From: Pirellulaceae bacterium
GTDB taxonomy: Bacteria; Planctomycetota; Planctomycetia; Pirellulales; Pirellulaceae
Assembly: GCA_020852965.1 (NCBI GenBank)
Contig: JADYZV010000048.1
Span: 1 to 64,000 of the forward strand
DNA length: 64,000 nt
Direction: 5' to 3'
In this document: piece by piece, positions 5,392 through 62,100 of the stretch
Layout: each line of letters begins with the position of its first letter
Numbering within the stretch: position 1 is the first letter of the stretch
The notes under the pieces: model-generated
Told to the model about the DNA's origin: nothing
Database searches by the model: none
The model's input: only the letters and a program-made list of their open reading frames with translations
Position numbers and translations under genes: made by a program

Positions 5392-5573
5392 GATACCGAC
5401 GGCGGAGCGTCGGGCCACATTGGGTTAGACCCCAGCGTGCTGGGCTTGCGAGGGGGGGGGAGATACCGACGGCGGAGCGTCGGGCCACATTACTTCCAAG
5501 GAGATACCGACGGCGGAGCGTCGGGCCACATTACTTCCAAGGAGATACCGACGGCGGAGCGTCGGGCCACATT
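5392..5573 (+). repeat. Four family H hairpin repeats (CCGACG...CGTCGGGCCACATT)
   Basis: Copies at 5392-5421, 5462-5491, 5503-5532 and 5544-5573, the last three with a 41-base period. Each contains CCGACG-GCGGAG-CGTCGG followed by GCCACATT, so each can fold as a short hairpin. Read on the minus strand, the last copy begins inside the TAA stop codon of the gene at 5572-5907. Further copies lie at about 35.9, 55.7 and 60.2 kb. Confidence 0.8.
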
Positions 5574-5907
5574 AGCGCCGCGTCCACTGGGTGTAACTCT
5601 GCTGAATTCCAAAGTGTCTACCCCACTGAGAATTTTTCATAGAATGGGGATTGCTTCCAAACCAGCCGTAGGAATATGCGGCTTTGGGAGCCATGGGTTG
5701 GACCGGCAGCGCGGGGGAGGCGTTGTGACGTACCGTCGTGCTGAGCACGTGGTAGCTGGCAGCAGAAGCCCGCTGAACTGCTTCGGGAAAGGCAGGCCGA
5801 GCGGATCCCCACGGAAACGTCAGCGGCTCAGCCGACGAACCCTTTTGGGGCATGAGCGAACCGAGCAGAATGAGCAGCAGCGTGAAGGAAGCAGGTATTG
5901 AGCGCAT
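5572..5907 (-). CDS. Small secreted protein of unknown function
   Basis: 111 residues with an N-terminal signal peptide (MRSIPASFTLLLILLGSLM, then a small-residue site near SSAEP), so probably exported. The C-terminal third is rich in aromatic residues (YSYGWFGSNP, then WGRHFGIQQSYTQW). I believe this Tyr-Gly-Trp-Phe-Gly ... Trp-Gly-Arg-His-Phe-Gly pattern recurs in small planctomycete exported proteins, but no function is known to me. Its stop codon runs directly into a family H repeat. No operon partner is visible. Confidence 0.65.
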   Translation of the reverse strand: MRSIPASFTLLLILLGSLMPQKGSSAEPLTFPWGSARPAFPEAVQRASAASYHVLSTTVRHNASPALPVQPMAPKAAYSYGWFGSNPHSMKNSQWGRHFGIQQSYTQWTRR

Positions 5908-8456: not shown

Positions 8457-8491
8457 TTCACACTTCACACTTCACACTTCACACTTCAAAC
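8457..8491 (+). repeat. Heptamer tandem array, 5 units (TTCACAC)
   Basis: Four units TTCACAC and one TTCAAAC. The next seven bases (CTCCCTC) lead straight into the ATG of the membrane-protein gene at 8499, so the array takes the place of the usual leader and no Shine-Dalgarno is visible. Confidence 0.85.
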
Positions 8492-8498
8492 CTCCCTC

Positions 8499-9137
8499 AT
8501 GCGCGCGAACTTTCAAAAAAGCTATCGAATGCGTTACTTGGCTTTAGCCACAGTCTGCCTGCTGATGGCGGCTTGGTTCGGCTACGACGGGCTGGTGGGC
8601 TATCCTGCCCAGCTTCCTGCAGCCGAAGCCTATGATGAAATACGGGATCTCGATGACAAAAAGCGAGCCGAACAATGGAAGCAAATTGCCGCCGATAAGA
8701 ATCTCCCCAAACAGACGCCCAAAAAGACGGCCGAGCAACTGCGCAGCGACATCGTCGGACAGTATTTTTGGGGTGGCATCAATCTGCTCGTCGGCCTGCC
8801 AGCCCTATTCCTGTGGCTGCGCTCGCGCGGTAAATGGGTCGAGTCGACCGACGACGGGCTGACGACCAGTTGGGGGCAGACGCTCCGTTTCGGCGATGTC
8901 ACGCTGCTGGACAAAAAGAAATGGCAACGCAAGGGGATCGCCAAAGCGACCTATACTCCGGTGGGGGGGGTGGCCTCTGGGGTGTTTATCTTCGACGATT
9001 TCAAATTCGAACGCGAGCCGCTCGGCCAAATGCTGCGAGACCTGGAAAAACAACTACGTCCCGAGCAAATTGTCGGCGGACCGGCAGAGGCCGAGCTCGA
9101 AAGCTCCTCGGCGGAGGACCCTAAGCCGGAAGTCTGA
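8499..9137 (+). CDS. Two-TM membrane protein of unknown function
   Basis: 212 residues from ATG 8499; an in-frame ATG at 8529 (MRYLALATVCL) is an alternative start that begins at the first helix. One membrane helix lies near residues 12-30, and a second (YFWGGINLLVGLPALFLWL) near 87-107. Between them is a charged segment rich in Lys, Asp and Glu. After the second helix comes a soluble region (GKWVESTDDGLTTSWG ... FIFDDFKFEREPL) that looks like a small beta domain, perhaps of PH-like type. I do not recognise the family with certainty. It sits alone behind the DUF1559 terminator. Confidence 0.7.
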   Translation: MRANFQKSYRMRYLALATVCLLMAAWFGYDGLVGYPAQLPAAEAYDEIRDLDDKKRAEQWKQIAADKNLPKQTPKKTAEQLRSDIVGQYFWGGINLLVGLPALFLWLRSRGKWVESTDDGLTTSWGQTLRFGDVTLLDKKKWQRKGIAKATYTPVGGVASGVFIFDDFKFEREPLGQMLRDLEKQLRPEQIVGGPAEAELESSSAEDPKPEV

Positions 9138-14227: not shown

Positions 14228-14250
14228 GGATCACACATCCCTATTTTTTG

Positions 14251-14434
14251 GACCCCTGTGAGCTTGTCTCACCGGTAAATAAGTTTTGGATACAGCGGGA
14301 CCCCTGTGAGCTTGCCTCACCGGTAAATAAGTTTTGGATACAGCGGGACCCCTGTGAGCTTGCCTCACCGGTAAATAAGTTTTGGATACAGCGGGACCCC
14401 TGTGAGCTTGCCTCACCGGTGAACAAGTTTTGGA
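14251..14434 (+). repeat. Four tandem family A hairpin repeats, 48-bp period
   Basis: Starts at 14251, 14299, 14347 and 14395. Each holds GACCCCTGTGAGCTTGCCTC + ACCGGTAAATAAGTTTTGG (loop T/C variants), with stem GTGAG / CTCAC around CTTGC or CTTGT. The 48-bp repetition is nearly exact, suggesting recent amplification. Confidence 0.9.
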
Positions 14435-14459
14435 TATAGATCGAGGGCTTCCCCCATGC

Positions 14460-14646: not shown

Positions 14647-16425
14647 CTAGCCTTCGTAGGCACTGAGCTCTAACCAACGCTCTTCGACGACGCCGAGCTC
14701 CATCTCGAGCGCTGTGACATCGTTGTGAAGACGCAGCGCTTCCTCGGGATCGGTCGAGCTCATCAACTGTTCGTTGAGTTCCGTTCGCTGGGCGTCAAGG
14801 TTTTTGATCGTGCGTTCGATATTCTTGAGCTCCTTCTGCACTTGGCGCGAGTCCATGGCGGGGGAGGCTGCCGGAGCCGCATTGCTGTTCGCCATTTTCT
14901 TGGCTTTGGATCGAGTTGGCGCGCGAGTGCGTTCCCCCTCCTCAATCTCTTTATTGATGTAGTACAGATAGGCGTCGTAGTCGCCACCGTAGTTCTTGGC
15001 GGTGCCGTCGCGAACTTCGATAATGTTGGTCGCCAAGCGGCGCATGAAGTGCCGATCGTGGCTGGTGAAGATGACGGTGCCGCGATATTCGAGCAATGCC
15101 TCGGCCAACGATTCTACCGTCTCGACGTCCAGGTGGTTGCCCGGCTCGTCCAGCACCAGGATGTTATAAGTCCCCAGCAGTAGACCGGCCATGCACAAGC
15201 GGGCTCGTTCACCACCAGAAAGCACTTTCACTTTCTTATGCACGTGCTCGCCACGAAATAGTAGAGAGCCGGCAACGGTGAGAATCTGTTGGTTGGTGGT
15301 CCCTGGCGTGGCCTTGTACTCTAAGTATTCGAGCACCGTATGCTGTGGATCGAGGCTGCCGTAGACGTGCTGCGCATAGACGCCGATCTCGCAGGCATGT
15401 CCCCATTTGACCGTTCCAGCCACGGGAGAAAGCGAACCGACGATCGTGCGCAGTAGCGTGGTTTTGCCTTGGCCGTTGTCCCCCACGATGGCCGCTCGTT
15501 GACCGTGTTCAATCTCGATATTGATCCCTTGGGCAACCGTATTATCGGGGTAACCGATGGATAAATCGATTAGCCGTACTGCGGCACCGTTGCGTGGCGT
15601 GACGATGGGCGCGCGGATCGAGGCGGTAGGCAGATCCTCGGCGATTTCAACCGTTTGTAACCGTTCGAGCTGTTTGCCTTTGGATCGCGCTTGGCTAGCC
15701 GTACTGGCTCGGGCGCGGTTCTTGTCGATGAACTTCTGCAAATGCTTTTGCTTGGCTACCACCGCTGCATTGACGCGTTCATCATGCTCGCGGCGCTCGG
15801 CCTGGTAGATCAGAAACGGTTCGATCTTGCCGGGATACATGGTAAGTTTTCCGCGCGACAAATCGAGCGTATGATCGCAGGTGGCTTGCAGAAACGAACG
15901 GTCGTGCGACACGATCAAGGCCGCTTTATTGAAGTTCCGCAAAAAGTGCTCGAACAAGATTTGGGTGCGCACGTCGAGGAAGTTTGTCGGCTCGTCGAGC
16001 AATAGCAGGTTGGGTTCTTGCAGTAGCAGCGATGCCAGCTTGACCCGAGTTTGCCAGCCGCCGGAGAGTTCCGAGATCGGTCCGTTGAGATAGCTCCCCT
16101 TGAGTTCAAATTCGCCACCGACTTCACCGCACTTCCAGTCGGGCTGTCCGCTGTCACGCATCAAGAAGTCGAGCGCCGATTCGCCAGGCTGAAATGGGTC
16201 GTGTTGTCGTAGGTAGCCAACTTTGAGGCTCGAATGACGAATGACTTCGCCCTTCTCGAGCTCTTCTTCGTCGAGCAAAATGCGCAGCAACGTCGACTTG
16301 CCCGCACCGTTGCGCCCTACGAAGCCAATCTTGACATTGTCATTGATCGTCGCCTCGGCATCGTCGAGCAGCAATTGATGTCCGTAGCTCTTTGAAGCTC
16401 CGCGAATCTGTAACAAAACACCCAT
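14647..16425 (-). CDS. ABC-F family ATPase
   Basis: 592 residues from the ATG at 16423-16425 (MGVLLQIRGASKSYG). Two ATP-binding cassettes on one chain, no membrane helices: first Walker A GRNGAGKSTLLRILL, signature LSGGWQTRVKLA and Walker B LLLLDEPTNFLD; second Walker A GDNGQGKTTLLRTI, signature LSGGERARLCMAG and Walker B ILVLDEPGNHLD. The linker between them is charged (the P-site tRNA-interaction motif region of ABC-F proteins), and the C-terminus is a coiled coil (IKNLDAQRTELNEQ). Likely a ribosome-associated translation factor of the Uup/YheS type. The Walker B Thr-to-Gly change in the second cassette (DEPGNHLD) is seen in some members. A heptamer array ends one base before the start codon. 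Confidence 0.92.
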   Translation of the reverse strand: MGVLLQIRGASKSYGHQLLLDDAEATINDNVKIGFVGRNGAGKSTLLRILLDEEELEKGEVIRHSSLKVGYLRQHDPFQPGESALDFLMRDSGQPDWKCGEVGGEFELKGSYLNGPISELSGGWQTRVKLASLLLQEPNLLLLDEPTNFLDVRTQILFEHFLRNFNKAALIVSHDRSFLQATCDHTLDLSRGKLTMYPGKIEPFLIYQAERREHDERVNAAVVAKQKHLQKFIDKNRARASTASQARSKGKQLERLQTVEIAEDLPTASIRAPIVTPRNGAAVRLIDLSIGYPDNTVAQGINIEIEHGQRAAIVGDNGQGKTTLLRTIVGSLSPVAGTVKWGHACEIGVYAQHVYGSLDPQHTVLEYLEYKATPGTTNQQILTVAGSLLFRGEHVHKKVKVLSGGERARLCMAGLLLGTYNILVLDEPGNHLDVETVESLAEALLEYRGTVIFTSHDRHFMRRLATNIIEVRDGTAKNYGGDYDAYLYYINKEIEEGERTRAPTRSKAKKMANSNAAPAASPAMDSRQVQKELKNIERTIKNLDAQRTELNEQLMSSTDPEEALRLHNDVTALEMELGVVEERWLELSAYEG

Positions 16426-16426
16426 G

Positions 16427-16461
16427 GAAGTCTGAAGTCTGAAGTTTGAAGTTTGAAGTTT
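16427..16461 (-). repeat. Heptamer tandem array, 5 units (AAACTTC/AGACTTC)
   Basis: On the plus strand GAAGTCT twice and GAAGTTT three times, then a degenerate GAAAAAG. One base separates the array from the ABC-F start codon. The unit is related to the TTCACAC unit at 8457. Confidence 0.85.
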
Positions 16462-16590
16462 GAAAAAGGAAAACTGAAACGGAAAACCGACAAGGACTTC
16501 TTCGATTTGAAATCTCGATCTGATACCCTCGGACTCGAAAACCGCAATGACTCGCCGCATGCCTGCTGTCCAATGATCACAAAGGCCCAA

Positions 16591-24339: not shown

Positions 24340-27300
24340 CTAAGAGCGTTCGCCTAGCATCTGGTTGAGCAACTGCGATACCTCCTCAGCTCCCAAGTTC
24401 GGGAGTTGCTCCAACAATGCAGCCGCCTGCGATTCCGTCAACTCAGACAGCCTCGCTGGAGCACTGGCTGCGCTGTGCTCGGCGGTATCGTCGGTCGACA
24501 CTTCATGCTTCTGACGCAGCGCGTCGCATAATGACTCTATCACATGCGACAAGCTCTCGCTGCGCATGAGCGATGCAATGGGCAAGTTGACTTCCAATTG
24601 TCGCTCGATCCAGTTGCGCAGTTCGACGGCCATCAGCGAATCGAGTCCCAGTTCTAGTAGTGCGCGATCGACGGGCAATTGGTTGGCAGAGATGCCGAGC
24701 AGACTTCCCGCCTTGGCGCGCAGCATCTTTTCGACCATGGCAGATCGCTCGGCTGCAGGCATATTGCGCAGGTGATCTGCGGACGCCCAGTCATCGGCGG
24801 CTGTTGTTCCAACTGAATTAACGTCACGCAGCAGATGAGCGAAACGCGGCGAGATGCGTTGGGTAACTCCTAGTCCGCGCCAAAGACTCCAGTCGATACG
24901 CAGCACGCTAACTTGAAGTTCATGATTTTGCAACGCATACTCCAAGCAATTGGTGGCTTGTTCGACACTAAAGCTCAAAACTCCTTGGCGCTCGAGCCGT
25001 TTGCCGAGTTGCTCGCGCGCGGCCAAGTATCCAACTTCGCCCAAGTGTCCCCAGTTGATGACCGTTGCGGGGAGTCCCTGAGCGCGGCGATGGTAGGCCA
25101 AGCTATCGAGGAACGCATTGGCGGCTGCGTAATTCGCTTGACCTGCGTGCCCAAACACGCTCGACAGTGACGAAAACAGTATAAAATAATCGAGCGGGAA
25201 ATGTTGTGTCTGCTGATGGAGATTCCAGCCGCCGAGTAGTTTCGGACGCAGCACGCGTTGTAGTGTGTCATCATCGAGGTCGGCCAGCAGCTTGTCCTCC
25301 AAAACCATCGCGGTATGCAGCACGCCACGCAGCGGTGGCAGGTCTTTGGCTATCATCGCCAGGACATCGTCCACTTGTGCCGGATCTGTAATGTCGGCGG
25401 GAAGGTGCGTTACGCGACAATCGGCCTGTTGCAGTTCGGTGATCGTCTGCTGGGCCACGGCGCTGGGCAATGGACTCCGACCGCTGAGAACCAACGAACG
25501 CACTCCGTGGCTTACCAACCAACGGGCGGTTTCTAAGCCAAAGCCCCCCATTCCGCCTGCGATCCAAAACGTACCATTCGGATCGAAGGAAATGGGAAGT
25601 GTCGAACCGACGCGCACCTCGCTGGGAGCGGACTGGTAATCGACAACCACTTTGCCAATGTGCTTCCCCTGCTGCATTAATCGAAAGGCGTCACGCGTCT
25701 CATCGGCCGTAAAACTTTGTGTCGGCAACGCTTGCAACTGTCCGCTGTCAAAGCGTTCGACCAGGTCTCGTAGCAAATCTCCCATGCTCGAAGCTCGTTG
25801 CTTGAATAGCTGATCCAGGTCGATGGCGAACAAAGCCAAATTATTTCGGAACGGATACAGGCTGAGCGCCGCGTCGCTGTAGATATCGCGCTTGCCGATC
25901 TCCAAGAAACTACCGCCGACCTTCAATAGCGACAGTCCGGCCGCAATGGCTTCTCCGGGCAACGAATTGAGCACTGCGTCCACCCCGGCCCCCTTGGTGG
26001 CAGCCAACGTTTGCTCGACGAAGGCGAGCGAGCGCGAATCCATTACACAGGTAGCGCCAACCTGGCGTACCAAGCGACGTTTTTTCTCGCTACCTGCCGT
26101 CGCGAAAATCGTTGCACCCGCCAGGCGAGCGAGTTGCATTGCGGCCAAACCAACTCCGCCACTGGCCGAGTGAATCAACACGCTGTCGCCAGCTTGCAAT
26201 CGAGCGCACTGGTTGAGCGCATAGTCGGCCGTCATGAAAGCGATCGGGATGGCAGCGGCTTGCTGATAGGTCAACCTACGCGGTTTGCGAGCGACCAGCG
26301 ATTCCCGCACAATGGTGTGTGAGCCAAAGGCGGCTGGGGCGATGGCAATCACTTCATCGCCAACTTGCCACCGGCTCCCCTCGGCCACGCGCGCGATGCG
26401 TCCGCAGCACTCGGCACCCAGGTCGATTGGCCCATCGGGCAGCCCTGGATAGAGCCCTAGCACCTTCATCACGTCACTAAAATTCAGCCCAGCGGCGATC
26501 ACTTCGATCTCAACTTCACCCGGCTGGAGAGCGGGCCGCGAGCTGGTTTGGTAGTGAAGCGTTTCCACTCCCGACGATGAACCCACACGGAGCTGACAGG
26601 CCATTTGGCTGATGGCTTCTGCCGTGGCTAGTTTGCCTGCCTGGGGGCCAAAGCGATGCACCCAGCGCGTGCCATCGCGCCAAAGCACTTCATCTTCGTA
26701 TAGGTCGTGCGATTCGTACTCGTCCAACCCGGCAAGAAGTTCGGCGCGCAGACAATCGATATCGCGCGCCGAAATCTGCGAAGGTAGGTCGACAAGTTTG
26801 CCGCGCAGGCTGCCAAGCTCACTAATGACAACGCGTCCGAATCCAATCAGTGGTGCTTGAGCCACCTCCGTCAGTTCGGGCGGACCGTCGCTCGACTGCG
26901 CACCGGCGGTGACAAAGCAAATGATCGGAGGTAGTGCTCGTCCAAAATGTTCCTGCTGAGCCTGTTCCGCCACCAGGGCCTCGGCAGCTTGTACCAACCT
27001 GAGTGGCCCCTGCACGGTCAGCGCCGTGCACTGATCGAGCGACTCGGTGCTAAGCTGCTGTACGCTTGGATGCTGTGTGCTAGGACGCCGGGCGGAAGGT
27101 GCGTCGAGAGCCCACAGGTAGATGATGTTCGGAGCGTCGCCGTCGAGCACTGCCACCGCATTGGCTAACGCTTGCTGCATGGTCTCTGCCGACGTCGGCG
27201 AAGCTTGATAGAAACGATCCGCGAGCGTTTTAGGGACGTGCGATTCGTCGCGGTAAACCTCGACTACCTGGCAGCCGCGCTGACGTAGTTGCTGATTCAG

Positions 27301-30300
27301 CTCGCGACCTATCCCCCCTTCGTCCATGAACACGATCCAACTCCCGGCCGGCGCTGCACCGCTGTGCGTGGCCAAGGGTTGTTCCAGCCAGGTGTAGCCG
27401 TAGAGTAAGTCCTCGGTCGCCTCGGCGGTAACACCACCGCTGACTCGGCGGCTTTCGAAGTCCCGAATCGATAGACACAATTGTCCCTGGTCATCGTAGA
27501 TGTCCACGTCACAGCGCATCAGCTTTTTTGATTTGTGCGGGCAATGCACGATTGCTGTCATGCGCCGCGTCGGCTTGCGATGCAGGACGAACTGGCCAAT
27601 CTCCGCTGGCAGATAAAGTCCATCGATGCGGTGATCGAAGTCGGGATCGGCGGCGACCATGCCTTGAAAGCAACTGTCCAATAGGGTGGGATGAATCAGG
27701 TACTCCTCCCACGCCATTTCGTCTTCGGACAAGGCAGCAGGGTATTCGAGTTCCAATAGGGCTTCCCCGGCGCAACGCACTCCCGACACGACCCCTTGGA
27801 AGTTGGCACCGTAGTCAAGGCCAATGCGAGTACAGTAGGCGTACAGCCGGCGTGCGTCGAAGGAGTCCGTGCAACGACTGCGAACTTTAGCCACACGAGC
27901 GTCGAAGGACATCGGCTCCAGGGAGGATCCACTCGCCGGTTGCGAACTTACATCGAGCGTGATCAGCGGGCTCCACGTAGGCTCGTCGCAGGCACGAAAG
28001 GCGAGTCGAATTTGTCGGCGCGCGGCATCATAGCAGGTCTCGATCCATTGGGGATGAGCCTCGCTCAATACGCACGGATGACGCAATCGCACGCGCTGCA
28101 GGTGTATCGGCAGAATGGGACCATCTGCCTCAGCGCGAGTTAACTCACGGACGGCAGACAATGCCGTCTCGAGCATCGCGGCGGCCGGATAAACGGCCAC
28201 ACCACGCACCGTGTGGTCGACGAGATACGATTGTAGCTTGAGATCAATTCGCTGCTGCCAGCGTGGCTGTGGCGCGATGTCGGCCGAGCCCAATAGCGGA
28301 TGGGCTTCGCCGCTGAGTCGAGCGTGTTTCGATTCGAGGGACTCGGACCAACAGGTCTGCAATTGAAATGGATAGGTCGGCAGGTCCACTCGCCGCGTAG
28401 GCTGATTGTAAAAGCCCGACCACTGGATATCATGCCCCAAACCGTAAAGGCTGCCCAAGGATTTGGTAATGCATAACAAATCGTCCTGTTGGCGATTGAG
28501 CGAGGCCAGCGTATGCACCGAGTGGCCAGTCGACTGAAAGCATTCGTTGATCGAATAGGCCAACACCGGATGTGGACCAATTTCAATCGCCAAACCATAA
28601 CCTCGTTCGGCTAGACAATTCATCGCTTGGCTGAAATGTACGCTGTGACGAACATTCTTCCACCAGTATTCCGCGTCGAGCGCGTCACCATCGATCCACT
28701 GCCCCGTCACCGTGGAGACGAGCGGCGTGTGTGCGGCCTGCGGTTGAATGTGTGCCAATGAGGCGAGCAGTTCTTCGCGCACCGGCTCCATCTGCGGACT
28801 ATGAAAGGCGTACTCGACTGCCAACCGCCGGCAAAAGACACCGGCCTGTTCGAGCCGTACTGCCAATTGCTCGATCGTTGCCGCCGCTCCGGAGATGGTT
28901 ACGGAAGAAGGGCCATTGATGGCGGCGACGGAAACATCGGCTTCGAGGCCGCTGAGCCAACGGGGGACATCGTCGGGCGAAAGTCCAGCGGCCAACATCG
29001 CGCCCTGCGATGAAGCGAGGTCCATCGTGCGCCCACGATGAAAGGCAACGCAGGCGGCATCCTCAAAGGTCAATGCACCGGACAGATAAGCGGCTGCGAT
29101 CTCCCCCACGCTATGTCCGACCAGCACCGCCGGTTCGACACCCCAACTCTCCCATACCGCAGCCAACGCAATTTGAATCGCAAATAGACTCGGCTGAGCA
29201 ATCGAGGTCTTTTGCATTTTCGACGTCGCTTCGCTACGGGTCAATTCCTTCAGAAGCGACCAGCTTGCGACCTTCGAGAACTCCGTGTCGCAGCGTTTGA
29301 TCACGGAGCGAAAGGCGGGAGAATACTTGAGCAGCCCGCGTCCCATGGCCCACCACTGCGGACCTTGCCCAGAACAGATAAACGCGACCCCTGCGGCGCG
29401 GTGGGCGCTGCTTATCTGCGTCGACAGTTCGGCGGTCGTGCTGGCGGCGAGCACTCGAAGCTCAGCGATCATGTCGGAAACGTTGGTGGCCGTAGCCGTA
29501 GCGCGGCAGTCGTGATGACTGCGGCGATGTGCCAAATAACCGGCCACTTCGGCGAGCTGCGTGGCGGCTCCACGCTCTTCAAACCAATGAGCGTATCGTT
29601 CGGCCACGACGGCCAACGCTGCGGGCGTTCGCGCCGACAGTGGCAGGAGCACCGGTGCCGCAAACGTCTCGCTCGCTGCCGCACTCGATTGTGAGGATGG
29701 CGACGAGTGCGATGGCGCGTCCCAGTCGCAGTGCCGCAAGTGGTCGAGCTGGTCCGCTGTGACGATCCGCGCCCGCGATCGCGATGGAGTACTAGGCGCC
29801 GAAACATAGTCGAACGCCGTCTGCGATTCGCTGGCAGGTGGTGCCTGCTCCAAAATCACATGGGCATTGGCCCCGCCATAGCCGAATCCGTTGATTCCAG
29901 CTAATCGACTGCGATCCGATTCCCAAACCTGTGATTGTCGCGGTATCTGCAAGTGCAACTGCTCGAAATCGATGGCCGGATTGGCTTGCTGAAAATGCAG
30001 ATGTGCGGGAATGCGTCGATGATGGAGCGCCAACGCGACCTTCATCAGACTAGCGATCCCCGCCCCGGCTTCCAAATGGCCAATGTTGGTCTTAACCGAT
30101 CCGATAATGCAGGGATCGTTCGAACGGCGGCCAGCACCCACCACACCTCCAATCGCGGCCGCTTCCAACGGGTCACCGACGGGCGTGCCCGTGCCGTGGG
30201 CCTCAACATATTGGATGTCGCTGGGGAGAACACCCGCTTTGTCACAGGCGGTGCGAATCAATTGCTCTTGGGCCGCCTGACTAGGAACGGTCATGCCCGC

Positions 30301-31137
30301 CGTGCGTCCGTCTTGATTGAGTGCCGTCGAGCGAATAACCGCGTAGATGGGATCTTTGTCGCGCAAGGCCGCCGACAACGGTTTGAGCACTGCCATGCCG
30401 GCTCCTTCGCTGCGGACATAGCCGTTGGCCCGCGCGTCAAACGACTTGCAGCGCCCGTCGGGCGAAAGCACTCCAAGCTGGCTGAATGCCACGTAGAAAT
30501 CGGGTAGTAACAGCGCGTTGACACCACCAGCCAACGCCATCCGCGCTTCACCACGCCAAAGGCTCTCACACGCCAAGTGGACGGCAACCAGCGACGATGA
30601 GCAAGCCGTGTCGACCGATACGCTCGGGCCACGCAAATCAAAACAATAGGATATGCGATTGGCTGCGATGCTCGATGATCCTCCCGTGTTGCTATAAGCA
30701 TCAATCACGCCGCGATCGCGTGGGCTGAGCCCAGCTACCGCATAGTCAAAACTGCTTATTCCTACGAAGACCGATACCGCTTGACCCGCCACTCGCTCAA
30801 GTGGTTGGCCGCCATCTTCGAGCGCGCGAAAGGCCACTTCGAGTAGCATGCGTTGCTGCGGATCCATACCCGCCGCTTCACGCGGTGAAATGCCAAACAG
30901 TTGTGGATCAAAGCGCTCGATCCCTTGCACGTAGCCACCCCAGCGACTTTGCGTCTTGCCCGGCTTGCCCGCTCGCGAAGCGTAAAACTTCTGCAGATTC
31001 CATCGCTCAGGCGGTGTCTCGGATATGGCATCGACGCCATCGTTCAACAGCCGCCAATAGCCGCGCCAATCCTGTACCCCTCCCGGAAAGCGGCAGCCCA
31101 GGCCAATGATTGCGATCGAGTCGTTGCGTGCGTTCAT
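24340..31137 (-). CDS. Single-module reducing type I polyketide synthase (KS-AT-DH-ER-KR-ACP)
   Basis: 2265 residues, one complete fully reducing module. Ketosynthase 1-430 with Cys179 (DTACSSSLVAVH) and both His motifs (EAHGTGTPVGDP, KTNIGHLEAG). Acyltransferase 585-880 with Ser676 in GHSVGE and selectivity motif YAFH at 776, more like malonyl than methylmalonyl types. Dehydratase 945-1235 with HTVRGVAVYP (His975) and HPTLLDSCFQ (Asp1154). Enoylreductase 1515-1835 with SASGGVGLAAMQ. Ketoreductase 1855-2035 with GGMGGFG and catalytic Tyr near 2003. ACP 2130-2205 with LGLDSLMAVEL (Ser2167). All active sites look intact. There is no thioesterase, methyltransferase or docking partner, so it probably works iteratively to make a saturated acyl chain that another protein releases. 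The neighbourhood has no other obvious PKS gene. The start codon overlaps a 29-unit heptamer array. Confidence 0.95.
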   Translation of the reverse strand: MNARNDSIAIIGLGCRFPGGVQDWRGYWRLLNDGVDAISETPPERWNLQKFYASRAGKPGKTQSRWGGYVQGIERFDPQLFGISPREAAGMDPQQRMLLEVAFRALEDGGQPLERVAGQAVSVFVGISSFDYAVAGLSPRDRGVIDAYSNTGGSSSIAANRISYCFDLRGPSVSVDTACSSSLVAVHLACESLWRGEARMALAGGVNALLLPDFYVAFSQLGVLSPDGRCKSFDARANGYVRSEGAGMAVLKPLSAALRDKDPIYAVIRSTALNQDGRTAGMTVPSQAAQEQLIRTACDKAGVLPSDIQYVEAHGTGTPVGDPLEAAAIGGVVGAGRRSNDPCIIGSVKTNIGHLEAGAGIASLMKVALALHHRRIPAHLHFQQANPAIDFEQLHLQIPRQSQVWESDRSRLAGINGFGYGGANAHVILEQAPPASESQTAFDYVSAPSTPSRSRARIVTADQLDHLRHCDWDAPSHSSPSSQSSAAASETFAAPVLLPLSARTPAALAVVAERYAHWFEERGAATQLAEVAGYLAHRRSHHDCRATATATNVSDMIAELRVLAASTTAELSTQISSAHRAAGVAFICSGQGPQWWAMGRGLLKYSPAFRSVIKRCDTEFSKVASWSLLKELTRSEATSKMQKTSIAQPSLFAIQIALAAVWESWGVEPAVLVGHSVGEIAAAYLSGALTFEDAACVAFHRGRTMDLASSQGAMLAAGLSPDDVPRWLSGLEADVSVAAINGPSSVTISGAAATIEQLAVRLEQAGVFCRRLAVEYAFHSPQMEPVREELLASLAHIQPQAAHTPLVSTVTGQWIDGDALDAEYWWKNVRHSVHFSQAMNCLAERGYGLAIEIGPHPVLAYSINECFQSTGHSVHTLASLNRQQDDLLCITKSLGSLYGLGHDIQWSGFYNQPTRRVDLPTYPFQLQTCWSESLESKHARLSGEAHPLLGSADIAPQPRWQQRIDLKLQSYLVDHTVRGVAVYPAAAMLETALSAVRELTRAEADGPILPIHLQRVRLRHPCVLSEAHPQWIETCYDAARRQIRLAFRACDEPTWSPLITLDVSSQPASGSSLEPMSFDARVAKVRSRCTDSFDARRLYAYCTRIGLDYGANFQGVVSGVRCAGEALLELEYPAALSEDEMAWEEYLIHPTLLDSCFQGMVAADPDFDHRIDGLYLPAEIGQFVLHRKPTRRMTAIVHCPHKSKKLMRCDVDIYDDQGQLCLSIRDFESRRVSGGVTAEATEDLLYGYTWLEQPLATHSGAAPAGSWIVFMDEGGIGRELNQQLRQRGCQVVEVYRDESHVPKTLADRFYQASPTSAETMQQALANAVAVLDGDAPNIIYLWALDAPSARRPSTQHPSVQQLSTESLDQCTALTVQGPLRLVQAAEALVAEQAQQEHFGRALPPIICFVTAGAQSSDGPPELTEVAQAPLIGFGRVVISELGSLRGKLVDLPSQISARDIDCLRAELLAGLDEYESHDLYEDEVLWRDGTRWVHRFGPQAGKLATAEAISQMACQLRVGSSSGVETLHYQTSSRPALQPGEVEIEVIAAGLNFSDVMKVLGLYPGLPDGPIDLGAECCGRIARVAEGSRWQVGDEVIAIAPAAFGSHTIVRESLVARKPRRLTYQQAAAIPIAFMTADYALNQCARLQAGDSVLIHSASGGVGLAAMQLARLAGATIFATAGSEKKRRLVRQVGATCVMDSRSLAFVEQTLAATKGAGVDAVLNSLPGEAIAAGLSLLKVGGSFLEIGKRDIYSDAALSLYPFRNNLALFAIDLDQLFKQRASSMGDLLRDLVERFDSGQLQALPTQSFTADETRDAFRLMQQGKHIGKVVVDYQSAPSEVRVGSTLPISFDPNGTFWIAGGMGGFGLETARWLVSHGVRSLVLSGRSPLPSAVAQQTITELQQADCRVTHLPADITDPAQVDDVLAMIAKDLPPLRGVLHTAMVLEDKLLADLDDDTLQRVLRPKLLGGWNLHQQTQHFPLDYFILFSSLSSVFGHAGQANYAAANAFLDSLAYHRRAQGLPATVINWGHLGEVGYLAAREQLGKRLERQGVLSFSVEQATNCLEYALQNHELQVSVLRIDWSLWRGLGVTQRISPRFAHLLRDVNSVGTTAADDWASADHLRNMPAAERSAMVEKMLRAKAGSLLGISANQLPVDRALLELGLDSLMAVELRNWIERQLEVNLPIASLMRSESLSHVIESLCDALRQKHEVSTDDTAEHSAASAPARLSELTESQAAALLEQLPNLGAEEVSQLLNQMLGERS

Positions 31138-31339
31138 TCTTGGTGCTTAGTTCTTGGTTCTTGGTTCTTGGTTCTTGGTTCTTGGTTCTTGGTTCTTAGT
31201 TCTTGGTTCTTAGTTCTTAGTTCTTAGTTCTTAGTTCTTAGTTCTTAGTTCTTAGTTCTTAGTTCTTGGTTCTTGGTTCTTGGTTCTTGGTTCTTGGTTC
31301 TTGGTGCTTGGTGCTTGGTGCTTGGTGCTTGGTGCTTGG
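31137..31339 (-). repeat. Heptamer tandem array, 29 units (TTCTTGG type)
   Basis: Exactly 203 bases: TTCTTGG with variants TTCTTAG, TGCTTAG and TGCTTGG, arranged in blocks. The first unit shares its first base with the PKS start codon, so on the coding strand the array is the whole immediate leader and ends ...CACCAAGA-ATG with no Shine-Dalgarno. The 7-base unit is not a multiple of three. Confidence 0.95.
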
Positions 31340-31362
31340 TAGTGGACGAGGTTACGAGTCCC
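31339..31362 (+). repeat. Family G repeat, copy 1
   Basis: GTAGTGGACGAGGTTACGAG + TCCC, also found at 34135-34158 and 39145-39168. It joins directly to the end of the heptamer array. Confidence 0.7.
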
Positions 31363-42365: not shown

Positions 42366-42592
42366 TTTGCAACTCGACCAGCCTACTCAGCCATCTTCAA
42401 GCCACGCGCTCGACGCTACCGCTCGTCACTTCACTAATACATGATTTTGACGGACCACTAGCCACCGCTCCAAATTGAAAAACGAAGAGTCAGCGCCAAG
42501 AAAACTCTGCATTTTGCATTTATCAATTCTCATTTTGCATTCCCAGAATGCTCAATGTCTTCCCGCGCCGTAGTCTTGGTGAGCACCGCGCA

Positions 42593-42648
42593 CCAAGAAC
42601 CAAGAACTAAGAACCAAGAACCAAGAACCAAGAACTAAGAACCAAGAA
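42593..42648 (+). repeat. Heptamer tandem array, 8 units (CCAAGAA)
   Basis: Six units CCAAGAA and two CTAAGAA, the inverse orientation of the array at 31137. It ends 13 bases from the stop codon of the DUF2062 gene. Just before it (42506-42545) is a loose CATTTTGCATT repeat. The rest of 42366-42661 has no recognised content. Confidence 0.9.
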
Positions 42649-42661
42649 CCACTCCCTCCCC

Positions 42662-43294
42662 TCAGGCAGCGTTTTCTTCGCCGGGCGCATTGCCCTTGGT
42701 GCTAGCAGCGGGATGCGAAACTCGCGACTGCTCGGGTACTCGGCCCACTTCCTCTACGGGTGTTAGCTTGGGGGGCATTAACTGACCCCAGCGGCGCAAA
42801 CGATAACTGCGAATCGCCAGCAGTGAGATATAGTAGCTGAGAACTCCCAACGCGCTGGCCACCACCACGCATCCCAGACACAGAGGGGGGATGATATCCA
42901 TCAGCCCTTCCCACCAGAATTTGATGGTGATACCCCACGTGGTCGTTGGGTCGGCCTGCAATTGCTGCCACTCGGTCCATTTCTCGTTGTCTACTTTCCC
43001 GCCAAGCAGGACGCAGCCAAGCCGGTAGCAGGGGTAGTAAATTGGAATGGCGGTGGCGGGGTTAGAAATCCAAACGAGTGGTATTCCCACCAGTTTGTTG
43101 GCGCGCAACATCCATGCCAGCGTCACCGACAGCAGCATCTGAAAACCGATCAGCGGCGTAAACGTCACGAACATGCCCACCGCGATCCCCAGCGCTAGTC
43201 GATGCGGCGGATCGTCGGCATGTAGCACTTTATACACGCAAAAATCCTTCGCGCGTTTCCAGTAGTGCCGGAATTGATCGCTGACAATTTTCAT
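42662..43294 (-). CDS. DUF2062 membrane protein
   Basis: 210 residues with three to four membrane helices. The DUF2062 signature is present: HRLALGIAVGMFVTFTPLIG, then FQMLLSVTLAWMLRANK and GIPLVWISNPATAIPIYYP. The family is found as single genes or fused to glycosyltransferases and has no settled function. The C-terminal 50 residues are polar and low in complexity. It has no operon partner; the heptamer array at 42593 lies just past its stop. Confidence 0.9.
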   Translation of the reverse strand: MKIVSDQFRHYWKRAKDFCVYKVLHADDPPHRLALGIAVGMFVTFTPLIGFQMLLSVTLAWMLRANKLVGIPLVWISNPATAIPIYYPCYRLGCVLLGGKVDNEKWTEWQQLQADPTTTWGITIKFWWEGLMDIIPPLCLGCVVVASALGVLSYYISLLAIRSYRLRRWGQLMPPKLTPVEEVGRVPEQSRVSHPAASTKGNAPGEENAA

Positions 43295-48400: not shown

Positions 48401-48689
48401 AGTCACTTACGTACAAGCCAAAGAACTGCTCACTCTGTTCGGTGAACCGCGACGCTCAGCCCGGATCATCAAGACGCCCACCGATCGCTCGCTCGAACAG
48501 ACCATCAATGCCTCGGTCGAATACGCGGCTATCAATCCGCGCACGTTGGCCATCGAGAGTTTCAAAATCGGCCAAGATGGAATACGCGTAGACGCCCCCA
48601 TTGCACCCGGCGGAGTCGCGCCGCCAGGCGGCAACCTCCCCATCCCCAACCCGCGCGGCAGCGTATCCGATTTCCTCCAACGCCGCTAA
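45411..48689 (+). CDS. Giant LptC/LptA (OstA)-like LPS transport protein
   Basis: 1092 residues, about five times a normal LptC. One N-terminal membrane helix (VSTLLGLLIVMGGYSLFVV), then a periplasmic part made almost wholly of beta strands. The N-terminal 230 residues follow the LptC pattern (ADVLIVSSELGAVIHLE, DLSLDRSRVFTQQEVIIEW, IIVGHDMKLTLQGDLLG); the rest has repeated OstA/LptA-like stretches (VELKAPTIDAFASAKRLRID, VNIMASQLDH, EGEGAEVTYVQAKELLTLFG). The gene is nine bases after kdsC. Context and fold indicate that it bridges LPS from the inner membrane to the outer membrane, perhaps uniting LptC and LptA in one chain. Fusion is an inference. Confidence 0.78.
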   Translation: MNVFIRRYVSTLLGLLIVMGGYSLFVVPAIEPPARPPVTPPPFSGALAGDQWWRSFFPAGAWQTSNPQILQSKRGIVLLSQSWVQEGPKTLRLQPLTMILPQGDSLESSDAAKDVLIVSSELGAVIHLEEEFDPSVSTPSVERGQLSGAIEITRQLQGKPNEYPLKLRTSDLSLDRSRVFTQQEVIIEWPEGIIVGHDMKLTLQGDLLGAHNKQESSPWGPLRTLELYHVDRIEAALPAGGLWKDSKLPSPAGQPPLSTLPALMKLACGGRFTFDFTQSRATLTGGVQLTHQLAQLPPDEFSSQEVTLQVVPPDGSHSNPLHTARASDSRGTLGGIQIRQIEARGVDSLENFVGERKVELKAPTIDAFASAKRLRIDVLKNRIELDGKLDHPSATQSTAWLKYGGYEFTAPRIDYDSDGNAANPALAAEHLGYLVASGAGELRMPSTASTGKALVRWQDTLEMRPTDIAGQQWVGLFGNVLVESALHGYMASDKLEIWLRKNQAASAASNAPAPGGTLSNTSVATAQFLPERIHATGKTTLDAQQIKAHVEELSLALNFVQDVDPNAAAPGSPALSDSAGRPMYQWLNPPAENVSAGGAISPVPPIAQAAQGTQKKFNPLTVNGSSLHSTIIVAGQESWVDNLTVAGPLNVTGEAIGPNQPGWNVVGDELQLATNSAGQVDMQISGKPARITLGEGSLEGPLIRFDQRSNLIWMDQPGEFTIPTSALAASQPSSTGTIDWFEPPHCTWKGRMLFDGRIVRIEGDIDFDGAMAIDHDQFWWIHGKSDVLQLELSQAVNLDDLKGATAQPLKVTVSQNVNIMASQLDHTGTKKSRQQLQLPSLSFDIQTHEILGLGPGSIRSWYIAKSTIGQMASSSASRATENLQGAHLIFRESMSGFLDRSELNFLGKVEVAAGPLANWEESIDLAQMQRLTINQMHLDCDLLKLYDTSGLSSTASLASGRGSGGDRTSKAWEIQAKGNVHFAGKAESGDYEGEGAEVTYVQAKELLTLFGEPRRSARIIKTPTDRSLEQTINASVEYAAINPRTLAIESFKIGQDGIRVDAPIAPGGVAPPGGNLPIPNPRGSVSDFLQRR

Positions 48690-48695
48690 GGAAAG

Positions 48696-48863
48696 TTTTT
48701 GGTTCTTGGTTCTTGGTTCTTGGTTCTTGGTTCTTGGTGCTTGGTGCTTGGTTCTTGGTGCTTGGTTCTTGGTGCTTGGTGCTTGGTGCTTGGTGCTTGG
48801 TTCTTGGTTCTTGGTGCTTGGTGCTTGGTGCTTGGTGCTTGGTGCTTGGTGCTTGGTGCTTAA
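48696..48863 (+). repeat. Heptamer tandem array, 24 units (TTCTTGG/TGCTTGG)
   Basis: 168 bases exactly. The left end is a degenerate unit six bases after the Lpt-like gene's stop; the right end is TGCTTAA, in which the bases 48860-48862 are the reverse of the DUF1501 stop codon TAA. The array thus fills the whole convergent gap and includes the stop codon of one gene. Confidence 0.95.
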
Positions 48864-50278
48864 GCGATGATCTCGCGAACTACCTTTCCATGCACGTCGG
48901 TCAAGCGAAAGTTGCGCCCAGCGTGTTCAAAGGTCAAGCGTTTATGGTCCAAGCCGAGTTGGTTCAATAGGGTAGCGTGTAGGTCGTGCATATGTACGCG
49001 CCCTTCAACGCCACGAAAACCGAATTCGTCACTTGCCCCGTAGGTCATGCCAGGTTGGAACCCACCGCCGACCAACCAAACCGTAAAACCGCCCGGATTG
49101 TGATCGCGTCCCGTGCCGTTCTCCTGCGAGTAGGGCGTGCGTCCAAACTCGCTCCCCCACCACACGATGGTATCTTCCAACAGACCGCGTTGCTTGAGGT
49201 CGGTCAGCAAGCCAGCAATCGGCTTGTCCACTGCCAAAGCGTGATTCGCATGCTTGGGCAAGTTTGAGTGTTGATCCCAGGCGGGATTGGCCGAGTTGTC
49301 GCCGTAGTTGACTTGGATGAAGCGCACGCCCGACTCGCACATACGACGCGCCATCAAGCAGCGCTGGCCATAGTCGCGCGTCGCCGGATCGTCGATCCCA
49401 TACAGCGAGCGAGTGTGCGACGATTCTTGTTCCAAATCGAGCACATCGGGGGCGACCTGTTGCATTCGCCAAGCCAGCTCCTGAGCATTCAATGCCGCCT
49501 CGAGCTCGCTGTCACCCACTCTGCGCCGCGACAACTGCGCTCGGTTCAATCGTTGTAGCAAAGCGAATTGCTCCCGCTGGCTCGTCATGGTCACCCCAGC
49601 ACGCGTCAAGCTGTCGAATTCAAGCGCCGAGCCATCGGGCGTGCCGAGCTTGGTCCCTTGGAACTGTGCCGGCAAAAAAGCACTGCCGTAATTGCGCGGC
49701 CCCCCATTGCCGATCGACGGTGCGATGGCTACGAAGCCGGGCAGATTCTGGTTCTCGCTCCCCAAGCCATAGAGCACCCACGATCCGACCGATGGGCGAA
49801 TAAAATTGGTTGACCCACAATGCAAAAACAGCGTTGCAGGACCGTGAGCGACGCCTTCGGTGTGCATGGCGTGTAGCAGACACATGTCATCGATGTGTGC
49901 GGCGGTATGCGGAAATAACTGCGATACGTGCCGACCCGTTTGGCCGTATTGTCGGAACTTCCAGGGAGAACCCATCAAATGCTGTTCGGTCCGCTTGCCC
50001 GTTTTGGCCAGTTGCCGAGCGTCGTCGAAGGTCAGCACCTGTCCATGGCGTTGATTCAACAATGGCTTGTAGTCGAACGAGTCGACTTGGCTGACGCCTC
50101 CCTGCATGAACAAAAAAATCACTCGCTTGGCAGCCGCTCGGTGATGCAATCCCTGTGTCAGCGAATGCGTTCCCGCTCTGGCTTGGTCGCCAGCCAATAG
50201 AGCGGTTGCGGCCAACGAGCCGAAACCGCAGGCGGCCCGTTGCAATGCCTGGCGGCGACTAATGAATGGATTGAGCAT
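48860..50278 (-). CDS. DUF1501 protein (sulfatase-like, Tat-type signal)
   Basis: 472 residues from the ATG at 50276-50278. N-terminal FISRRQALQRAACGFGSLAA is a twin-arginine-type signal. The body belongs to DUF1501, related to the alkaline phosphatase/sulfatase superfamily: KRVIFLFMQGGVSQVDSFDYKP, HGPATLFLHCGS, ARRMCESGVRFIQVNYGDN, WWGSEFGRTPYSQENGTGRDHNP. Its stop codon lies in the heptamer array. The PSD1 gene is 13 bases upstream; this pair is one of the most frequent operons in planctomycetes and is thought to act on the cell surface in polysaccharide or redox metabolism, though it is not established. Confidence 0.93.
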   Translation of the reverse strand: MLNPFISRRQALQRAACGFGSLAATALLAGDQARAGTHSLTQGLHHRAAAKRVIFLFMQGGVSQVDSFDYKPLLNQRHGQVLTFDDARQLAKTGKRTEQHLMGSPWKFRQYGQTGRHVSQLFPHTAAHIDDMCLLHAMHTEGVAHGPATLFLHCGSTNFIRPSVGSWVLYGLGSENQNLPGFVAIAPSIGNGGPRNYGSAFLPAQFQGTKLGTPDGSALEFDSLTRAGVTMTSQREQFALLQRLNRAQLSRRRVGDSELEAALNAQELAWRMQQVAPDVLDLEQESSHTRSLYGIDDPATRDYGQRCLMARRMCESGVRFIQVNYGDNSANPAWDQHSNLPKHANHALAVDKPIAGLLTDLKQRGLLEDTIVWWGSEFGRTPYSQENGTGRDHNPGGFTVWLVGGGFQPGMTYGASDEFGFRGVEGRVHMHDLHATLLNQLGLDHKRLTFEHAGRNFRLTDVHGKVVREIIA

Positions 50279-50290
50279 GGTCACGCCTCT

Positions 50291-60951: not shown

Positions 60952-61031
60952 CCTGGGGTTACGCTTGGCTCGCTGAGGCTCGCCGCGCTCCACCCCAGGC
61001 TATCCAAATCTGCGGTTCCACCGCTAAATGC
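60952..61031. repeat. Left 80-bp inverted repeat of the RAYT unit
   Basis: Matches the reverse complement of 62021-62100 in 76 of 80 positions. It ends in ...CACCGCTAAATGC, the family D hairpin, and is joined directly to the heptamer array. Confidence 0.9.
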
Positions 61032-61310
61032 CAAACGACCAATGACCAATGACCAACGACCAATGACCAATGACCAATGACCAATGACCAATGACAAATG
61101 ACCAATGACCAATGACCAATGACCAATGACCAATGACCAATGACCAATGACCAATGACCAATGACCAATGACCAATGACAAATGACCAATGACAAATGAC
61201 AAATGACCAATGACAAATGACAAATGACAAATGACAAATGACAAATGACAAATGACAAATGACAAATGACAAATGACAAATGACAAATGACAAATGACAA
61301 ATGACAAATG
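61031..61310 (+). repeat. Heptamer tandem array, 40 units (ACCAATG/ACAAATG)
   Basis: 280 bases exactly. Units are mostly ACCAATG on the left and ACAAATG on the right, with a mixed zone at about 61180-61215. The last base is next to the transposase stop codon (CTA, 61311-61313), with no gap. Confidence 0.95.
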
Positions 61311-61772
61311 CTAGCTCACGATATCTTCTTCAAACACGTAGGCGAGGTCATAAACGATGTTATGCCTATCGAGAAAATCGAGATACTCTTCTTGAAACGA
61401 TTTCGTTTTATGATGTTCGACTTGGTTGCGGATATAGTTTCGAACGCTCTCGGCCACAGACTGGCTCACGGAGAATGCGGCGTAGCCTTTTTGCCAATGG
61501 AACTTGCCGGTTATACGATTGGTTTCGTTGATCCAATGCGACGAGTTGGCTTTTAGGAGTCGGATGGTATCGGCAATGGCAAACGATGGATGGGTCTTGA
61601 GAAACAGGTGGATATGATCTTCAATCCCGCCGGCTTGCAGCAACGCTCCTTTGTGTTCTTTGACTTGATCGCCGATGATGGCAAACAACTCATCGCGCCA
61701 CGTGTCGGCCAACAATCGCTTGCGGTATTGGGTGCTGAAAATCACATGCACGAGTATGCCATGAAAAGACAT
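61311..61772 (-). CDS. tnpA: IS200-like/REP-associated tyrosine transposase
   Basis: 153 residues from the ATG at 61770-61772, with GGAGG placed nine bases upstream (GGAGGTTCCTCATG). Y1 HUH single-strand transposase: GILVHVIFSTQYRKRL at the N-terminus, AGGIEDHIHLFLKTHP with the HxH metal site, and RNYIRNQVEHHKTKSFQEEY with the catalytic Tyr. These features look intact. REP-associated (RAYT) types cut and move hairpin repeats. The open frame continues upstream of this ATG without a stop, through a repeat; the Shine-Dalgarno decides the start. Confidence 0.92.
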   Translation of the reverse strand: MSFHGILVHVIFSTQYRKRLLADTWRDELFAIIGDQVKEHKGALLQAGGIEDHIHLFLKTHPSFAIADTIRLLKANSSHWINETNRITGKFHWQKGYAAFSVSQSVAESVRNYIRNQVEHHKTKSFQEEYLDFLDRHNIVYDLAYVFEEDIVS

Positions 61773-61914
61773 GAGGAACCTCCAGTCGAGTGGTCTGCGA
61801 GCCGGGAAGAAACACCGCCTCCAATCATATCGATTCCGGCATTCCCAAAAAATCGGTTTGTGCACGAGCTGTCCCGATTTTGAGTTGGCAATAGACGAGT
61901 GATGGAAGCGCGTA

Positions 61915-61986
61915 CATTGCATTCTCCTTATTGCATTTCCCCCAGTCACATTCCACCCAGTCACATTCCTCCCTATTGCATCCTCC
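61915..61986 (-). repeat. Five 15-base repeats with Shine-Dalgarno-like cores
   Basis: Minus strand units: GGAGGATGCAATA, GGGAGGAATGTGACT, GGGTGGAATGTGACT, GGGGGAAATGCAATA, AGGAGAATGCAATG. Each joins a GGAGG-like string to an ATG. They lie 140-215 bases upstream of the transposase start. Confidence 0.7.
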
Positions 61987-62020
61987 TTGATCCACCACCC
62001 ATTTCGCATACTCCATAGTT

Positions 62021-62100
62021 GCATTTAGCGGTGAAACCGCGGATTTGGATAGCCTGGGGTGGAGCGCGGCGAGCGTTAGCGAGCCAAGCGTAACCCCAGG
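62021..62100. repeat. Right 80-bp inverted repeat of the RAYT unit
   Basis: Begins with the family D hairpin (GCATTTAGCGGTGAAACCGC) and contains GCCTGGGGTGG / CCACCCCAGG-type pairing. 76 of 80 match the left copy in inverse orientation. Confidence 0.9.

What the first reader, a model, noticed from the sequence alone, without database searches (positions are those of the whole stretch)
31137..31339. Heptamer tandem arrays that touch start or stop codons
Seen directly: six arrays have a unit of exactly seven bases: 8457-8491 (5 units), 16427-16461 (5), 31137-31339 (29), 42593-42648 (8), 48696-48863 (24), 61031-61310 (40). Their borders meet gene borders: the 31137 array shares a base with the PKS start codon, 48696 contains the DUF1501 stop codon, 61031 meets the transposase stop with no gap, 16427 is one base from the ABC-F start, and 8457 is seven bases (one unit) from a start. 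The units fall into two sequence groups (TTCTTGG/TCATTGG and TTCACAC/TTCAAAC), so the constant is the period and the position. Slippage in a seven-base unit would change leader length, so array copy number could tune expression of the PKS, ABC-F and others. The mechanism that places them at codon borders is unknown to me.
Basis: seen in the sequence. Interest (0 to 1): 0.78.

Follow-up and report, generated by a model that had tools for sequence, protein, structure and literature searches.

The report
One-way heptamer repeats ending at genes
In this bacterium dozens of arrays of a seven-letter DNA repeat end within twenty letters of a gene's start or stop codon, nearly always with the same strand end facing the gene, so the repeats likely grow one way and would be stopped by selection where coding DNA begins.

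Summary
All six arrays exist, and in 1.655 Mb of the same genome 78 of 78 period-7 arrays are non-coding, with 9,043 bases against 141 for period 8. They abut gene borders far more than uniform placement gives: 40 of 45 ACCAAG-family arrays with both neighbours called, 12.4 expected. The 3' end of the C-rich strand faces the border, whether start or stop codon: of 60 heptamer arrays of all units, 42 are flush only at that end, 2 only at the other. Unit types are layered along the arrays, 11 of 35 flush stop codons lie inside array sequence, and 0 of 21 flush starts keep a Shine-Dalgarno-like motif against 329 of 1137 others. In other lineages the same unit is mirrored: arrays outside the set that suggested this gave 8:0 in Verrucomicrobia/Lysobacterales and 0:14 in four Bacteroidetes genomes and Chloroflexi. 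Best reading: one-way growth toward the gene, halted by selection; growth itself is inferred. Expression tuning is not supported in general. Heptamer repeats near ORFs are known; the two-codon border rule and mirrored polarity look new.

The parts
8457..8491 (+). TTCACAC/TTCAAAC array; C-rich strand is +, its 3' end points to an ATG at 8499 (7 bases on)
   Evidence: TRF 8457-8488, sequence; start codon uncertain
16427..16464 (-). GAAGTTT/GAAGTCT array; C-rich strand is -, its 3' end is 1 base from the ABC-F start codon
   Evidence: ABC-F profile
14647..16425 (-). ABC-F family protein gene next to the array
   Evidence: NCBIfam ribo_prot_ABC_F above its cut-off
31137..31340 (-). 29-unit array ACCAAGC -> ACCAAGA -> ACTAAGA -> ACCAAGA (C-rich strand is -), flush with the PKS start codon
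   Evidence: unit order
24340..31137 (-). Type I polyketide synthase gene (KS-AT-DH-ER-KR-ACP)
   Evidence: Pfam; KS domain begins at residue 6
31342..31361 (-). End of a REP-like dispersed element (GGACTCGTAACCTCGTCCACT, minus strand) at which the PKS array begins
42592..42651 (+). ACCAAGA/ACTAAGA array; 3' end 10 bases from the stop codon of the DUF2062 gene (42662-43294, minus)
48699..48861 (-). ACCAAGC/ACCAAGA array that fills the gap between two convergent stop codons; 3' end of the C-rich strand on the left, 9 bases from the stop at 48689
48860..50284 (-). DUF1501 gene whose stop codon is overlapped by the array
   Evidence: PF07394 matched to its last profile position at residue 473 of 474
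61037..61310 (+). GACCAAT/GACAAAT array, flush with the stop codon of the Y1 transposase gene
61311..62024 (-). Y1 (IS200-like) transposase gene
   Evidence: PF01797

Best explanation
These are polar heptamer arrays: one defined strand end sits within a few bases of a start or stop codon, and the arrays likely lengthen at that gene-facing end, by slip-back copying of the last heptamer during DNA synthesis, until they reach coding sequence, where purifying selection would stop them. Shown: intergenic confinement, flush position at both kinds of codon, strand polarity, layered unit types, array-encoded stop codons, absence of Shine-Dalgarno-like motifs at flush starts, and a polarity of the same unit that differs between lineages. 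Inferred: that the gene-facing end is the younger, growing end; that slip-back (rather than another synthesis or insertion step) adds the units; that selection at the coding border decides where growth ends; and that new arrays inherit the handedness of a founder array in their lineage.
For: Position: 48 of 54 family arrays are within 20 bases of a gene on the 3' side of the C-rich strand, 8 of 48 on the 5' side; other units 8 of 16 and 0 of 15. Polarity 42 against 2, p about 1e-10; of the 2 exceptions one is a head-to-head array and one has an uncalled ATG on the expected side. Start and stop borders alike: 17 and 31. Four gaps hold two inverted arrays, each at its own gene, so replication or transcription direction does not set the polarity. 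Far first unit ACCAAGC/ACTAAGC in 17 of 41, gene-side last unit in 6 of 49; non-canonical units 13 of 123 far, 3 of 147 near. Far flanks keep weak 7-base periodicity. Array supplies the stop codon, TAG each time, in 11 of 35 flush stops. No Shine-Dalgarno-like motif in 21 flush starts. Different handedness by lineage, 8:0 against 0:14. At sucC-sucD the spacer is 397 bp here and 42-124 bp in ten relatives.
Against: Growth was not observed; direction rests on layering and on few mutated units, and TRF end rules may add to it. If units were only inserted, the old leader should lie between array and gene; flush position then needs loss of tens of bases or seeding at the border, and the residual-gap test cannot tell. 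In less array-rich Pirellulaceae many arrays are not flush: by my count, 10 only 3', 1 only 5', 1 both, 8 neither. Layering has exceptions (for example the array at C36, whose C-type units lie next to the gene). No enzyme is identified.
Confidence: 0.4

Rival explanations
1. Outward addition: broken intergenic ends next to a gene are extended by G-strand heptamers (telomere-like) and then rejoined, so the gene-side unit is the oldest.
For: Polarity is that of repeats added to a 3' end leaving the gene; head-to-head arrays and inverted pairs look like fused ends. Start and stop borders are treated alike.
Against: Mutated units and older-looking flanks lie at the far end. No excess of reverse transcriptases (PF00078): 2 matches here, 10 in the array-free closed relative G155, 0 in array-bearing G172. 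Break points would not by themselves fall at codons.
Confidence: 0.2
2. Oriented insertion: a mobile process (for example ssDNA transposition of REP-like elements by Y1/IS200-type enzymes) places arrays at gene borders in a fixed orientation, and slippage only changes their length.
For: A Y1 transposase gene lies in the window; a REP-like element is abundant (166 hits with up to 3 mismatches in the sample, some of them chance) and four arrays begin at its end. The same unit recurs at dozens of loci. DNA is added at sucC-sucD.
Against: Far flanks of most arrays differ and share no body or terminal repeat. No known target rule covers both start and stop codons.
Confidence: 0.2
3. Selected regulatory leaders: copy number tunes expression of the neighbouring gene.
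For: 17 family arrays touch start codons; TAACTGA repeats in Beggiatoaceae end at start codons and were proposed to act in translation (PMC4679880, abstract and section 7).
Against: 31 of 48 are at stop codons; genes are ordinary housekeeping genes; polarity of the same unit is mirrored in other lineages.
Confidence: 0.1
4. Undirected slippage that survives only in short intergenic gaps, or an artefact of assembly or gene calling, makes the arrays look flush.
For: The genome is a 199-contig assembly and several contigs end in arrays; gene calls are from my own finder.
Against: Uniform placement predicts 12.4 flush arrays and 40 are seen; polarity is 42 to 2. Single-contig genomes G138 and G148 show it too. 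Start codons agree with NCBIfam profiles.
Confidence: 0.06

Closest known systems
Heptameric GGGAATC repeats of Xanthomonas and GGGGA(C/T)T of Nostoc (PMC4692102; passages and sections 10 and 11 seen)
   Same: Dispersed, mostly intergenic heptamer arrays; in Xanthomonas almost exclusively nearer to the ORF 5' of the G-rich strand (28 against 160 nt), convergent pairs common, divergent gaps rare: the same polarity as here
   Different: Other units; read there as G-quadruplex repeats; flush start/stop borders, layering and mirrored polarity are not described in what I read; the Nostoc section gives no such distance and few pairs
TAACTGA direct repeats of Beggiatoaceae (PMC4679880; abstract, passages and section 7 seen)
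   Same: Heptamers oriented toward start codons, commonest distance 1 nt; some overlap ORFs; few Shine-Dalgarno motifs
   Different: Mostly 2-6 units; mostly starts (132+15 of 170 sets, 12 toward stops). A sample of 24 sets in Microcystis did not share the orientation
Cyanobacterial short tandemly repeated repetitive (STRR) heptamers
   Same: Tandem heptamers dispersed in a genome (named; details recalled)
   Different: Polarity to gene borders not seen by me in print
Contingency-locus simple sequence repeats (phase variation)
   Same: Tandem short repeats that can change length beside genes
   Different: Mostly 1-5 nt units (PMC4692102 abstract); no switching evidence here and two thirds of flush arrays are at stop codons

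Membership tests
Long simple sequence repeats (heptamer class) | Head-to-tail units of 5-11 bp, heptamers commonest, intergenic | tested here: met
Long simple sequence repeats (heptamer class) | Unit not tied to one genus; patchy between relatives | tested here: met
   (ACCAAGA)3 in 15 of 199 family genomes and 2 of 301 genomes of the Chloroflexi draw; many phyla
Phase-variable contingency locus | Copy number changes switch or tune a gene | not testable with these tools
   no reads, strains or expression data
Phase-variable contingency locus | Placed where length change alters expression (coding, promoter or leader) | tested here: not met
   31 of 48 flush family arrays are at stop codons; not met as a general rule, though 17 are at starts
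Transposable element or MITE | Common flanking body or terminal repeats at the copies | tested here: not met
   far flanks differ by eye in the list; four arrays begin at a REP-like element
Telomere-like or RT-made repeat | A reverse transcriptase gained in array-rich genomes | tested here: not met
   PF00078 counts do not follow arrays in 14 genomes; only this one family was searched

The most novel reading that the evidence does not exclude
Bacteria carry tip-growing, enzyme-free selfish repeats: heptamer arrays with an inherited handedness, set by a founder in each lineage and mirrored between lineages, that creep one way through intergenic DNA, take the place of the leader beside start codons, take over the last codons and stop codons of genes, and halt only where selection protects coding sequence, leaving layered units as a record of their growth.
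Probability: 0.27. Interest if true: 0.82.

Novelty: new variant of a known kind. Interest (0 to 1): 0.62.

Why it matters
Heptamer repeats have long been noted in bacteria without an account of why they sit at gene edges. A strand polarity that treats start and stop codons alike, and that is mirrored for the same unit in other lineages, narrows the causes: replication direction, transcription direction or a leader function alone would not give it. It turns an old curiosity into a directional process that long reads can test, and it shows such repeats beside start codons of housekeeping genes and supplying stop codons.

Tried and rejected
Rejected or undecided: (1) C-richness as a universal rule: it fits Planctomycetes, Verrucomicrobia and Lysobacterales, but the same ACCAAGA unit is mirrored in four Bacteroidetes genomes and in Chloroflexi, and in Chloroflexi other units are 11 to 5 in the first polarity. 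(2) Replication or transcription direction: inverted arrays share one gap. (3) Reverse transcriptase: no association. (4) Residual spacer length as a test of overwriting: with length-biased seeding allowed for, it does not discriminate. (5) Alignable empty sites: same-genus DNA matches are mostly 64-79% identical apart from a few short pieces; only the sucC-sucD spacer comparison worked (sucC end recognised in 10 of 12 relatives fetched). (6) A first cross-phylum gene finder that masked arrays with stop codons was biased and gave 14 only-3' and 20 only-5' of 68; it was replaced. Over all phyla one search shows no net polarity (16 against 15 of 60 informative rows of 84); the lineage split was seen there post hoc. 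Rows against a simple 'Bacteroidetes are mirrored': Flavobacteriia L195 and L230, Saprospiraceae L200 and L258 (from a genome later used as mirrored) are only-3'. In one search two loci (L384, L398) were dropped because one search already held those arrays. The pooled sets were picked by hand and leave out those Flavobacteriia and Saprospiraceae loci. (7) The 'read backwards' control of the genome search is no control here, since ACCAAGA reversed is a cyclic shift of itself. (8) In 301 genomes drawn from the Chloroflexi only 2 (one of them the centre) hold the unit, so further arrays came from genomes already known to bear it. The 20-base limit was set after seeing distances; at 10 bases the counts are 0:7, 0:2 and 6:0.

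Full report
What was checked. The window is the first 64,000 of 64,181 bases of contig C48 of an 8.37 Mb, 199-contig genome. All six arrays are real.

Genome sample. Many were chosen because a search had shown ACCAAG arrays there, so counts are not densities. My hexamer gene finder gave 1,185 genes at 82% coding. TRF gave 78 period-7 arrays, none coding, 9,043 bases; period 8 gave 3 arrays and 141 bases. Sixty of 78 have the unit ACCAAGA, ACCAAGC or ACTAAGA. After merging neighbours 73 arrays remain, 57 of this family and 16 of other units.

Border and polarity. With each array oriented by its C-rich strand, the 3' side is within 20 bases of a gene in 48 of 54 family arrays with a called neighbour there, the 5' side in 8 of 48; for other units 8 of 16 and 0 of 15. 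Uniform placement in the same gaps predicts 12.4 of 45; 40 are seen. Of 60 arrays of all units with both neighbours, 42 are flush only at the 3' side, 2 only at the 5' side, 6 at both, 10 at neither. Of the 2, C70:33987 is a head-to-head array and C117:3217 has an uncalled ATG at the expected side. Flush family borders are 31 stops and 17 starts. Divergent gaps are avoided, 1 of 45 against 169 of 901 gaps of 40 bases or more (p=0.002). In four gaps two inverted arrays each meet their own gene, and two arrays are head-to-head. In the window five of six arrays lie within 10 bases of a gene on the rule's side; the sixth (8457) does so if the ATG at 8499 is the start.

Genes at the border. Start codons look right: sucD matches its profile from residue 1, fliJ from 5, sufS and recG from 8, purB and hisC from 9, and the PKS KS domain from residue 6. 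None of 21 flush-start genes keeps a Shine-Dalgarno-like 4-mer, against 329 of 1137 others. Of 35 flush stops 21 are TAG, against 458 of 1157 among all called stops (p=0.02); in 11 the array overlaps the gene by 5 or more bases and supplies TAG each time, with a C-terminal Gly-Ser in five. Among 17 family arrays that reach the stop codon (distance 0 or less) the last unit carries TAG in 9, against 156 of 621 units (p=0.02). This is what selection for a stop codon at an advancing array would leave.

Layering. Written from the far end to the gene with a=ACCAAGA, c=ACCAAGC, t=ACTAAGA, u=ACTAAGC, the PKS array reads cccccaaaaaattttttttataaaaaaua. The far first unit is c or u in 17 of 41 arrays, the gene-side last unit in 6 of 49 (p=0.003); non-canonical units are 13 of 123 in the far three and 3 of 147 in the near three (p=0.004). 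Exceptions exist (C36). Far flanks, those with a second family array left out, keep weak 7-base periodicity: 0.315 in 33 flanks against 0.263 in 788 control gaps (p=0.036). I read the far end as older; TRF end rules could contribute.

Insertion or overwriting. Gap minus arrays has median 158 (31 codirectional) and 209 (9 convergent) against 135.5 and 127 in array-free gaps. Overwriting from a random seed in length-biased gaps predicts 163 and 159, so this does not decide. At sucC-sucD ten relatives whose sucC end I could recognise (of 12 fetched) have spacers of 42-124 bp, nine of them 42-76; here it is 397 with 268 of array. So DNA is added there.

Other genomes. (ACCAAGA)3 is patchy: 15 of 199 family genomes including this one, none of the 13 other same-genus genomes drawn; another same-genus genome, G199, has related arrays. 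In other family genomes I count 20 ACCAAG-type arrays: 10 flush only 3', 1 only 5', 1 both, 8 neither. Eighty named loci from many phyla gave no net polarity (16 only 3', 15 only 5', 6 both, 23 neither of 60 informative rows), but the two kinds fell largely by lineage, with exceptions inside Bacteroidetes (Flavobacteriia, a Saprospiraceae locus and one of three loci of CTSoil_028 follow the first polarity). I then tested arrays not in that set: four Bacteroidetes genomes 0 only 3' and 9 only 5' (13 informative of 18), Chloroflexi 0 and 5 (8 of 22), Verrucomicrobia with one Lysobacterales genome 8 and 0 (11 of 14); 8:0 against 0:14 gives p=3e-6. Most of these arrays come from the same genomes as the first set, and arrays in one genome are not independent, so p is optimistic. 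In hand-picked pooled sets family units are 1 only 3' and 17 only 5' (Bacteroidetes without the Flavobacteriia), 0 and 9 (Chloroflexi), 16 and 2 (foreign Planctomycetes and Verrucomicrobia); other units in Chloroflexi are 11 and 5. So handedness seems to belong to a unit in a lineage, not to base composition.

Mechanism. What start and stop borders share, in either gene direction, is that coding sequence begins there, so purifying selection is the natural limit; polarity then needs one-way growth or oriented insertion. I favour one-way growth at the gene-facing end by slip-back synthesis, with handedness inherited when arrays seed new ones. Reverse transcriptase counts do not follow arrays. 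Outward addition and oriented insertion stay open.

Literature. Heptamers as the commonest long simple repeats are known, and a polymerase-footprint cause was proposed (as cited in passages of PMC4679880 and PMC4692102; the original paper not seen). Xanthomonas GGGAATC repeats lie nearer the ORF 5' of the G-strand, with convergent pairs (section 10), and TAACTGA repeats end at start codons (section 7): both fit the polarity here. A sample of 24 TAACTGA sets in Microcystis (6 toward starts, 8 reversed, 8 between stops; passage) does not fit a start-facing rule. Passages of PMC6749651 and PMC4060949 mention heptamer satellites in bacteria and longer SSRs but, in what I saw, no polarity. Searches listed no title or abstract start that states flush start-and-stop borders or mirrored polarity; the library is open-access only and the papers were read in passages and sections, not whole.

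Noticed in passing
31342-31361 (minus) and 166 hits with up to 3 mismatches in the sampled genome: A REP-like dispersed element (GGACTCGTAACCTCGTCCACTAC, often as a pair of inverted copies) is abundant in intergenic DNA; four heptamer arrays begin at its end.
   Followed up: partly
61311-62024 (minus): A 237-aa Y1/IS200-like transposase gene that could be of the REP-associated (RAYT) kind (name recalled) lies in the window.
   Followed up: no
5459-5574 and 14250-14436: Non-heptamer tandem repeats of 41 and 48 bp with palindromic cores in intergenic DNA.
   Followed up: no
G000 contigs C9, C28, C41, C78, C79, C98, C107, C117, C197: Contigs of the assembly begin or end at heptamer arrays, so array lengths there are minimum values and the arrays are likely assembly breakpoints.
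   Followed up: partly
L155-like far flanks, e.g. G000 C155:19649-19994, C159:5376-5424: AAAATGC-type heptamer arrays lie in the middle of gaps that also hold ACCAAG arrays at the border, as if an older generation of arrays had been left behind.
   Followed up: partly
G000 C70:34588-34835: An array ends 3 bases before the start codon of recG, a repair helicase gene.
   Followed up: no
24340-31137 (minus): A single-module reducing type I PKS (KS-AT-DH-ER-KR-ACP); its neighbours and product were not studied.
   Followed up: no
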